DNA of 23,602 nt, taken from a virus. Below, piece by piece: positions 14,732-16,509 of this stretch; the first letter of the stretch is position 1, and every line of letters begins with the position of its first letter. The stretch is from positions 1-23,602 of IMG/VR virus record IMGVR_UViG_3300005513_000029. One strand, written 5' to 3'. Made by a program: the position numbers and the translations under genes. Under the pieces are notes generated by a model that was not told where the DNA came from, did not search any database, and saw only the letters and a program-made list of their open reading frames with translations.

Positions 14732-14760
14732 AAAGGGCCAAGGTTTAGCCTTGGCCCTTT
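14732..14760. terminator. Bidirectional hairpin terminator between D and the reverse-strand block
   Basis: AAAGGGCCAAGG and CCTTGGCCCTTT form a perfect 12-bp stem with a 5-base loop (TTTAG). The arms end in AAA/TTT, and reverse-strand sequence beyond the stem is T-rich (TTTGTTTATT). It lies between the stop of D and the stop of the convergent gene at 14765, so it should end transcription from both directions. Confidence 0.88.
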
Positions 14761-14764
14761 CGCT

Positions 14765-15217
14765 TTACTCGTCGCCGGCGGTCACTTCACCCGGCCGTCG
14801 CGGCCGACAGGCATTGCCGGCCACACACACCCAAAGGCGCTCAGAAATGTAGCTTGTCCGCTTTTCCGCATCGAGCGCGATGTTTTTAAGCGCCTCACAC
14901 TCATTTCGCCCACCCTGAAATGAGAACCCTTGTGCGCCGATATCGTTCCGTATCTCAATGCGCCGTATGTCGGACCGCCCCCATGTGTTCGCAGTCCAGC
15001 ATGCGCCGAACGTCAAAACATTATCGAAAGCTTCGCGCCTCACGACTGGTTTGCGAATCGTCATATAGAGCGATCCTTTTTCCAGTTTCACCCCGTCAAC
15101 CTGTCGGCTTGCAAGGCTCTTTTGCAGAGCCGGCGGCAACTCGGCCGCGTGAACGCTGAGCACGTTGCATAGTGCGGCAATGATGATTGACTTGGCGGTC
15201 CATACAGATAGCTTCAT
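14765..15217 (-). CDS. Exported four-cysteine protein of unknown function
   Basis: I chose the ATG at 15217 because GGGGAA sits 7 bases upstream; a start at 15235 would place the lysine-bearing N-terminus inside an extension without a ribosome site. The 150-residue product opens with a signal peptide (MKLSVWTAKSI, hydrophobic core to about residue 22, VHA-A cleavage). The mature part has four cysteines (in FGAC, NEC, WVC and NAC), which could form two disulfides, so it is probably periplasmic. There is no convincing lipobox. I recognise no family. It lies downstream of the ORF6C-like membrane protein on the same strand, in the D-repressor interval where P2-like phages carry accessory genes. 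Superinfection exclusion or lysogenic conversion would fit but is only a guess. Confidence 0.75.
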   Translation of the reverse strand: MKLSVWTAKSIIIAALCNVLSVHAAELPPALQKSLASRQVDGVKLEKGSLYMTIRKPVVRREAFDNVLTFGACWTANTWGRSDIRRIEIRNDIGAQGFSFQGGRNECEALKNIALDAEKRTSYISERLWVCVAGNACRPRRPGEVTAGDE

Positions 15218-15298
15218 TAATTTCCCCGTGCACAAATTTCCAGTCGGTCAGCCTTGGCCAATTCACTGGTGCCTGCTAGATGCAATGGTTCGCGTGAC

Positions 15299-16024
15299 CT
15301 ACCGCCGATGCCGTGTGTTGACCTTTTCCCACGTGACTGTGTTGTCGTCAGTTATCGCGCATTGCTGGCGTAAGCCAGCTTGCAGGACCACGCTACCGAT
15401 AGAGTAGTGATGACCACCGTACTCGCATTGCGCCGCGACCGGTGCGGCGGGCGACTGCGCGGATGCTGTTGACAGGTCTACAACGACATAGGCCACGGCT
15501 GAAAGCGCGGCGATTACTCCGCACGCTACGGCAACCGCTCGCCACGGCGCCTTTCTCGCAGGCACGTCAGGCATTGCCGCCTGGGCGAAAAGCTGCGGAG
15601 TTGCTACGTTCGGATTTGTGGAGGTGAAAATATGCCTCGCGTCTTCCGTGGCATCGCGATATGACGCATCGGCAGCGGGGCTCGACGTTCGCGATGAAGC
15701 CTTGACCGGTGCCGGCTCCGTTGTGCCATTTCGCAACCAGACTTCGAGATAGGACATCGCACGCTGGTACACGTCGCGCGGCATCTCGTCCATGTTAGGG
15801 AACTTGAATACCGTCATCAGGCGCCGATATACCATCAGCTTGTCGGTCTGCGTCTTGGCTTGGATCTGATACGCCTTGCGGGCGATTGCACTGCGCTGAC
15901 GGTCGCTGATGTAACGCTGTTTCGGTTCGTTGTGGATATGCACGCTTACGTTGGATTGCGCGCTATTTGTTTTGACATCGCGGCCCGCAACCTGCCCGAT
16001 GTCCCCGTTGAATTTCTGTTCCAT
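15299..16024 (-). CDS. ORF6C-like single-span membrane protein
   Basis: The product is 241 residues; GGAGAA lies 10 bases before the ATG. Residues 1-20 hold the motif FNGDIGQVAGRDV. Residues about 37-98 (SDRQRSAIARKAYQI to MSYLEVWL) resemble the ORF6C domain of phage regulatory proteins. A Ser/Ala/Pro-rich linker leads to one hydrophobic segment at about 161-183. The C-terminal 58 residues contain Cys200 and Cys222 in a CEYGGHHYSIGS context and should face the periplasm. It is transcribed away from the repressor, 50 bp downstream of it, so it is probably expressed in the lysogen. Membrane tethering of an ORF6C domain is unusual. Function is unknown; a lysogen-expressed envelope or immunity role is inference. 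Confidence 0.75.
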   Translation of the reverse strand: MEQKFNGDIGQVAGRDVKTNSAQSNVSVHIHNEPKQRYISDRQRSAIARKAYQIQAKTQTDKLMVYRRLMTVFKFPNMDEMPRDVYQRAMSYLEVWLRNGTTEPAPVKASSRTSSPAADASYRDATEDARHIFTSTNPNVATPQLFAQAAMPDVPARKAPWRAVAVACGVIAALSAVAYVVVDLSTASAQSPAAPVAAQCEYGGHHYSIGSVVLQAGLRQQCAITDDNTVTWEKVNTRHRR

Positions 16025-16074: not shown

Positions 16075-16509
16075 CTAATCTTTCTGCTCGCCCCGACGCT
16101 TCTTTCCCGTATTGCCCATGTCAATGGTGAAAGGACCGGTTACATCTCCGCTCACCTGCTGACCGATATTGGCGCCTTTAAAGCTTTGCTGGTACTTCGC
16201 TGGTGCCGCGCCTGCCGTCAGCGCTGCGACTGCAGCCACGCGGACCGCGTCTGGCGCTTCGCGGTATCGACGCACTAGGTCAGCTTCGTCCGGCGAAAGT
16301 GCCGACGTGTCACGTTCGCCGGTGAGGACGTAAAGCACGTCCACCCCAGCTCTCGCGACCGCTGACAGATATGCCCAATCAGGCGAGCGGTCACCGCTTT
16401 CGTACCGGCTTTGCGCAACGTTGGTCGTTGCGGCTAGTTCCGCAAGCTCAGCTTGTTTCAGACCCAAACGCTTCCGTTCGTCTTTGAGCCGCGCGCCGAA
16501 ATTTTCCAT
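16075..16509 (-). CDS. XRE-family prophage repressor (C/CI-like)
   Basis: The start is ATG at 16509 (MENFGARLKDERKRLGLKQ), giving 144 residues. The longer frame beginning at 16647 runs back through the operator and promoter region and is rejected. Residues about 5-65 form an XRE helix-turn-helix, with recognition region around TTNVAQSRYESGDRSPDW. There is no LexA/CI-type serine peptidase domain, so induction may not use RecA-stimulated self-cleavage. The C-terminus (from about 112) carries FKGANIGQQVSGDV, echoing the start of the neighbouring protein. Its start codon lies inside one of two operators, which suggests autoregulation. It should keep the early promoter silent in the lysogen. Confidence 0.85.
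   Translation of the reverse strand: MENFGARLKDERKRLGLKQAELAELAATTNVAQSRYESGDRSPDWAYLSAVARAGVDVLYVLTGERDTSALSPDEADLVRRYREAPDAVRVAAVAALTAGAAPAKYQQSFKGANIGQQVSGDVTGPFTIDMGNTGKKRRGEQKD

What the first reader, a model, noticed from the sequence alone, without database searches (positions are those of the whole stretch)
14765..16024. Lysogen-side accessory pair aimed at the cell envelope
Between D and the repressor, on the repressor strand, sit two genes unrelated to the P2 core: a single-span membrane protein with a cytoplasmic ORF6C-like domain and a periplasmic two-cysteine tail, and an exported four-cysteine protein. Both have good ribosome sites, and no terminator is visible between them and the repressor, so they are likely made in the lysogen. 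P2-like phages often carry anti-phage or lysogenic-conversion genes at such sites. A membrane sensor with a periplasmic partner that excludes superinfecting phages is a testable idea. It is not shown by the sequence.
Basis: partly seen in the sequence, partly recalled or inferred. Interest (0 to 1): 0.62.

Follow-up and report, generated by a model that had tools for sequence, protein, structure and literature searches.

The report
Motif-linked prophage repressor and membrane protein
In this prophage the protein that keeps the virus dormant and the inner-membrane protein encoded next to it carry the same short sequence motif at their facing ends, a pairing found again in at least 50 phage loci, which suggests that the dormancy switch is physically tied to the cell membrane.

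Summary
The two genes are real, but they are not a pair. The exported four-cysteine gene is an interchangeable accessory: relatives occur without the membrane gene, beside an unrelated repressor, and other phages carry different genes in that slot.

The membrane protein's partner is the repressor. The repressor's C-terminal tail (QQSFKGANIGQQVSGDV...FTIDMG) and the membrane protein's N-terminus (MEQKFNGDIGQVAGRDV...VSVHIH) share one motif. In 30 of 31 loci carrying this membrane-protein family a tailed repressor lies 17-65 bp upstream; the exception looks like a decayed prophage. Independent searches of 398 Burkholderiaceae genomes with tail and N-terminal profiles found 20 tails, 19 with a motif-bearing gene directly downstream. 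The motif heads several unrelated membrane proteins. The tail co-varies with the partner's motif (r 0.78) more than with its own DNA-binding domain (0.49). Related repressors without the tail have no motif partner.

Best reading: a membrane-tethered lysogeny switch built on motif-motif contact. A 2026 B. pseudomallei phage study found that deleting the repressor or the gene after it wakes the prophage; that gene corresponds by position only. Contact, localisation and signal are inferred. Superinfection exclusion is neither supported nor excluded.

The parts
16075..16509 (-). cI-type HTH repressor, 144 aa
   Evidence: HTH_31 1.7e-8; PHROG transcription regulation; relatives annotated as immunity repressor; profile matches P22 C2 and 434 repressors in PDB over residues 3-70 only
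16114..16191 (-). repressor C-terminal motif QQSFKGANIGQQVSGDVTGPFTIDMG (residues 107-132)
   Evidence: best of 436 window frames with a profile of tails from unrelated phages, E 0.0026; invariant Q108 F110 G112 G116 V119 G121 in 18 repressors; predicted disordered in the monomer
15299..16024 (-). membrane protein, 241 aa, phrog_6521
   Evidence: phrog_6521 'membrane protein' 2.5e-75; 26 IMG/VR and 5 GTDB loci plus phages AP3, Carl1, KS5
15932..16024 (-). N-terminal motif MEQKFNGDIGQVAGRDV...VSVHIH of the membrane protein
   Evidence: Q3 F5 G10 Q11 V12 A13 G14 invariant in 21 sequences; profile from other protein families finds it at 7e-8
15728..15904 (-). cytoplasmic helical domain (residues 41-99), ORF6C/Flk-like
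   Evidence: pLDDT above 90; phrog_5825 1.6e-10; a related motif protein (L131) hits Flk 2.5e-15
15467..15544 (-). transmembrane helix (residues 161-186)
15323..15427 (-). periplasmic five-strand domain with C200 and C222
   Evidence: pLDDT about 84; C200 G204 Y207 G210 C222 W232 invariant
14765..15217 (-). exported four-cysteine protein, phrog_3807; accessory slot, not a fixed partner
14732..14760 (-). intrinsic terminator ending the operon

Best explanation
The repressor and the membrane protein form one lysogeny-control module. The repressor's disordered C-terminal tail and the membrane protein's disordered N-terminus carry the same strand-loop-strand motif of about 28 residues, so they most likely bind each other by homotypic beta pairing. 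This would tether or cluster the repressor at the inner membrane. The membrane protein adds a helical protein-interaction domain and a periplasmic disulfide domain that could pass an envelope signal to the repressor. The membrane partner is probably needed to keep the prophage silent, and loss or a change of the contact would lead to induction. The exported gene is a separate lysogen-expressed accessory gene. Shown: sequences, gene order, motif homology, co-occurrence, co-inheritance. Inferred: physical contact, membrane localisation of the repressor, direction of regulation, nature of the signal.
For: 30 of 31 loci of the family have a tailed repressor 17-65 bp upstream. Tail and N-motif profiles searched separately gave 7/7 tails with an adjacent N-motif hit in 65 Burkholderia genomes. 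In 398 Burkholderiaceae genomes 14/20 tails had one at threshold, 19/20 after reading the neighbours. In 369 genomes drawn across the class both profiles hit only the reference genome. A leave-one-out profile of N-terminal motifs ranks the repressor tail first after the motif proteins themselves in 11 of 14 loci, E down to 3e-7. It also finds the tail of the Komp_PAO1_1 repressor at 1.6e-8, as strongly as the tail profile does. Unrelated membrane proteins with the motif sit in the same operon, up to three motif proteins per phage. Tail tracks N-motif: r 0.78, partial r 0.72 given the HTH, 0/2000 permutations. V-type tails pair with V-type partners. Related repressors without the tail (Milagro, Mana, Momento, Menos, Dobby, JBD67) show no motif in the stretch around the repressor. 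PMC13026187: in phage phiBP82.2, deleting gp38 (HTH) or gp37 (next gene) left no lysogen colonies and released phage; gp36 deletion was tolerated.
Against: phiBP82.2 gp37 matches by position only; its sequence could not be reached (searches found no B. pseudomallei phage under the accessions tried) and it may be a different gene. Removing gp37 could also disturb gp38 expression. No interaction is shown; AlphaFold leaves both motifs disordered in the monomers and complexes could not be modelled. Komp_PAO1_1 has the tail and no motif partner in its whole genome. A few motif proteins have a tail-less repressor upstream (L217, L259). Tail and partner are adjacent in DNA, so co-inheritance partly explains the correlation. 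In the window itself the N-motif profile does not find the tail directly; the link runs through other tails.
Confidence: 0.5

Rival explanations
1. Membrane-anchored antirepressor: the partner normally leaves the repressor alone and, on an envelope signal, captures it at the membrane through the shared motif and so induces the prophage.
For: The helical domain resembles the ORF6C region of antirepressors: relative in L131 matches phrog_245 'anti-repressor Ant' at 4.5e-4; Pfam ORF6C 0.004 in the L193 protein. Shared motif and gene order as in the main reading.
Against: Deletion of the gene at this position in phiBP82.2 induced the prophage instead of locking it (PMC13026187), the opposite of an antirepressor; identity by position only. 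ORF6C similarity of the window protein is below threshold.
Confidence: 0.2
2. Superinfection exclusion or anti-phage defence: the membrane protein, with or without the exported one, blocks other phages, and the motif recruits it or lets the repressor sense it.
For: PHROGs files the membrane family under moron/host takeover; lysogen-side position; small exported cysteine proteins recur beside motif membrane proteins. Prophage defence pairs involving a membrane protein exist (Butters gp30/gp31, PMC7542560).
Against: No PADLOC match for the membrane or exported protein; the exported gene is independent; the obligate association is with the repressor.
Confidence: 0.15
3. The motif is only an oligomerisation element of the repressor, and the membrane protein acquired a copy by duplication of the neighbouring 3' end; the two proteins need not interact.
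For: Komp_PAO1_1 keeps the tail without a partner; tail and N-terminus are adjacent in DNA.
Against: The motif is the best-conserved part of the membrane family and heads several unrelated partners, and it is joined to repressors whose HTH types differ; variants change together in both.
Confidence: 0.15

Closest known systems
Burkholderia P2-like phages KS5 (gp11/gp12), AP3 (gp39/gp38), Carl1 (39/38)
   Same: Same repressor and membrane gene, same order, same motif in both
   Different: Membrane proteins 41-44% identical to the window's; different downstream genes; the shared motif was not found described in Lynch 2010 (PMC3091744) or the AP3 paper (PMC5247547)
phiBP82.2 gp38-gp37-gp36 (PMC13026187)
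   Same: HTH gene followed by two reverse-strand genes, highly expressed in the lysogen; the first two needed for lysogeny
   Different: Sequence homology not verified here; authors leave the mechanism open
NLR-associated amyloid signalling motifs (BASS, HET-s, PP/RHIM)
   Same: A short G/Q/N-rich strand-loop-strand-like motif shared by the facing ends of two adjacent genes (PMC8086366, PMC7885112)
   Different: No NLR and no Bell effector; partner is a DNA-binding repressor; core F-x-G-x-V-G-Q-V-x-G instead of G-phi-Q-phi-G; no amyloid evidence
TF-small protein prophage modules (Silpe 2023, PMC10432266)
   Same: Phage-encoded, SOS-independent protein that acts on the master repressor
   Different: There a small antirepressor made on demand; here an adjacent membrane protein with a shared motif
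Flk, tail-anchored flagellar regulator
   Same: Related cytoplasmic domain in the sister motif protein of L131 (2.5e-15), membrane anchor (PMC6794478)
   Different: Flk is not a phage protein; the GQVAGG motif was not looked for in it

Membership tests
phrog_6521 membrane protein | full-length profile match | tested here: met
   2.5e-75 over 1-241 of 241 residues and 1-243 of 243 positions
phage cI-type repressor | N-terminal HTH and divergent position next to Arc-like/ogr genes | tested here: met
amyloid signalling motif (RHIM/PP/BASS3) | core G-phi-Q-phi-G | tested here: not met
   window motifs read I-G-Q-V-A-G and I-G-Q-Q-V-S-G; core definition from PMC7885112
amyloid signalling motif (any) | match to a Pfam model of a known amyloid motif | tested here: not met
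   no such Pfam hit up to E 1; I assume from memory that RHIM and HET-s models are in Pfam; BASS models are not known to be
amyloid signalling motif (any) | shared motif in facing termini of adjacent genes | tested here: met
amyloid signalling motif (any) | forms cross-beta fibrils | not testable with these tools
   needs peptide biochemistry
antirepressor with ORF6C domain | ORF6C domain above curated threshold | tested here: not met
   no ORF6C hit for the window protein; related L193 protein 17.5 bits against cutoff 22
antirepressor with ORF6C domain | relieves repression | not testable with these tools
   no experiment
known anti-phage defence system | PADLOC model match | tested here: not met
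   none for membrane or exported protein
   exported gene without the membrane gene in KS14 and L293; membrane gene with other downstream genes in most loci

The most novel reading that the evidence does not exclude
The shared motif is a new self-assembling signalling motif: envelope sensing by the periplasmic domain nucleates assembly of the membrane protein's N-terminus, which templates the repressor tails and switches the prophage, an NLR/amyloid-like relay used by a virus to decide between dormancy and lysis.
Probability: 0.15. Interest if true: 0.85.

Novelty: new variant of a known kind. Interest (0 to 1): 0.6.

Why it matters
Non-cleavable repressors of P2-like phages have no well-understood route to sense the host (general knowledge). 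A repressor tied by a dedicated motif to an inner-membrane protein with a periplasmic domain would be a direct envelope-to-prophage link. The module recurs in P2-like phages and others, and its tail in at least one Mu-like phage, with interchangeable DNA-binding domains and interchangeable membrane partners, and its motif can be recognised by a short profile. It also offers a mechanism for the unexplained finding that the gene after the repressor is needed for lysogeny in a B. pseudomallei phage (PMC13026187).

Tried and rejected
Exported protein as partner: rejected, independent occurrence. BLASTP of repressor against membrane protein: no useful hit; the motif needs profiles. First IMG/VR pattern (GQVAGGD alone): mostly chance matches; the longer pattern worked. 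RHIM/BASS membership: core not met. Solved-structure searches gave only HTH relatives for the repressor and nothing convincing for the membrane protein. Fold searches: no significant match, best weak ones Sak/RecT-like and ORF6C-like helical domains and small disulfide beta modules. tblastn with short motif peptides in annotated phages returned only the three Burkholderia phages and Komp_PAO1_1. B. pseudomallei phage records were not found under the accessions tried, so phiBP82.2 could not be compared.

Full report
What is there. The window is a 23.6-kb viral record from a P2-like phage with Burkholderia phages as nearest relatives. Between tail gene D and the repressor, on the minus strand, lie a membrane-protein gene (15299-16024) and an exported-protein gene (14765-15217). 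A strong terminator closes the operon at 14760-14732; none is predicted between the repressor and the two genes.

The overlooked feature. The repressor ends in QQSFKGANIGQQVSGDVTGPFTIDMG; the membrane protein begins MEQKFNGDIGQVAGRDV and continues to VSVHIH. Both read Q-x-F-x-G-(x)-[IV]-G-Q-(x)-V-x-G, a loop, then a short alternating hydrophobic strand. AP3, Carl1 and KS5 have the same in both proteins.

How general it is. The membrane family was found in 26 IMG/VR loci and 5 GTDB loci. In 30 of these 31 a tailed repressor ends 17-65 bp upstream. The exception, L009, has tRNA-like sequence and no readable repressor upstream and looks like a decayed prophage. A pattern scan for F-x-G-x-[IV]-G-Q-V-A-G in IMG/VR brought in further N-terminal motif proteins unrelated to the window's family: 2-TM proteins of about 130 aa, a Flk-like tail-anchored protein, and others. 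Upstream of many sits an HTH repressor with a tail such as KQVFHGEVGQVVEGGLKNTKPVTFNVGG. Some phages have three motif proteins in one operon: the repressor and two membrane proteins.

Is it more than chance. A tail profile built without the window's relatives finds the window repressor tail as the best of 436 frames (E 0.0026), and an independent N-motif profile finds the window membrane protein at 7e-8. With a leave-one-out N-motif profile the repressor tail ranks first after the motif proteins themselves in 11 of 14 loci. The N-motif profile finds the Komp_PAO1_1 repressor tail at 1.6e-8, so tails and N-termini are one motif family. Independent genome searches: in the genus 7 tails and 9 N-motifs in 65 genomes, all 7 tails adjacent. 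In the family there are 20 tails and 23 N-motifs in 398 genomes; 14 are adjacent at threshold and 5 more after reading divergent partners. The twentieth, L272, is not a repressor. By my own arithmetic the chance expectation for adjacency is of the order of 1e-4 for the whole set. In a spread of 369 genomes of the class both profiles hit only the reference genome.

Co-inheritance. Over 50 non-redundant pairs, distances between tails correlate with distances between partner motifs (r 0.78) more than with distances between the repressors' own HTH domains (0.49). The partial correlation given the HTH is 0.72 (0 of 2000 permutations), and HTH against partner given the tail is 0.19. Four V-type tails (V/I-K-G instead of F-x-G) pair with V-type partners. 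Adjacency in DNA contributes to this, so it supports a unit of inheritance and is compatible with, not proof of, contact. Control repressors without the tail (Milagro, Momento, Menos, Mana from Burkholderia; Dobby, JBD67 from Pseudomonas) show no motif in the stretch around the repressor; Mana is in the same genus as AP3.

Exported gene. Its family (phrog_3807) occurs in five IMG/VR loci: three with the membrane gene, two (KS14 and L293) with a LexA-like repressor and no motif. The slot holds other genes elsewhere: an OB-like exported protein, lipoproteins, a glycosyltransferase.

Function. Both motifs are predicted disordered in the monomers, as expected for a segment that folds on binding or assembly, though shallow alignments could give the same. 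A 2026 study of phiBP82.2, a P2-like phage of B. pseudomallei, reports that gp38 (HTH) and the two following reverse-strand genes are highly expressed in the lysogen. Deleting gp37 or gp38 gave no lysogen colonies and released phage; deleting gp36 was tolerated in the lysogen (PMC13026187). The authors' discussion nevertheless credits all three genes with lytic activation. By position gp38, gp37 and gp36 are the repressor, membrane and exported genes here. I could not check the sequences. The paper places the K96243 prophage it compares at tRNA-Phe, whereas phiBP82.2 is at tRNA-Arg, so the KS5-like pair that Lynch 2010 lists in K96243 need not be the phiBP82.2 pair. If the match holds, the membrane protein is needed for lysogeny, which favours a membrane-tethered co-repressor over an antirepressor and over pure superinfection exclusion.

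Novelty. The membrane family is catalogued (phrog_6521, 'moron') and the gene was noted beside the repressor in KS5. I found no description of the shared motif or of a repressor-membrane link in the papers searched. The layout resembles NLR-amyloid motif pairs, but the RHIM/PP core is not met and no amyloid property is shown. I rate it a new variant of known kinds (repressor-modulator modules; homotypic terminal motifs).

Noticed in passing
L183, L196, L232, L234 and L131, L169, L212: Two quite different repressor tails (FHGSVGQSVAG... and FKEVGQYIHG...) occur in front of nearly the same Flk-like motif membrane protein, with different HTH domains.
   Followed up: partly
L301 (Komp_PAO1_1) 36468-37001: A Mu-like Pseudomonas phage repressor has the full motif tail but no motif partner anywhere in its 40-kb genome; an exported cysteine protein follows it.
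   Followed up: yes
L272, reverse strand 1408-1776: A 122-aa protein that is not an HTH repressor carries the complete motif with its second strand (VIGNVGQVVAGGELNQPFRITMGG); the motif may exist outside phage immunity regions.
   Followed up: no
L012, L019, L029, L256, L278, L287 downstream of the motif membrane genes: An exported or membrane-anchored family with a core like MTPxxFxxxFN recurs after motif membrane proteins in different genomes.
   Followed up: no
L169, L174, L183, L234 and L301 37014-37613: A second exported family (core EPLGxCFAAGNxSRxWW) recurs between the motif genes or directly after the tailed repressor.
   Followed up: no
L063 and L190: A third, small protein with the motif (IGQLAGQDIINREA / IGQVAGHNVINREA) lies between the repressor and the 2-TM motif protein.
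   Followed up: partly
window 14732-14760: A strong hairpin terminator lies between the lysogeny operon and tail gene D, which faces it from the other strand.
   Followed up: partly
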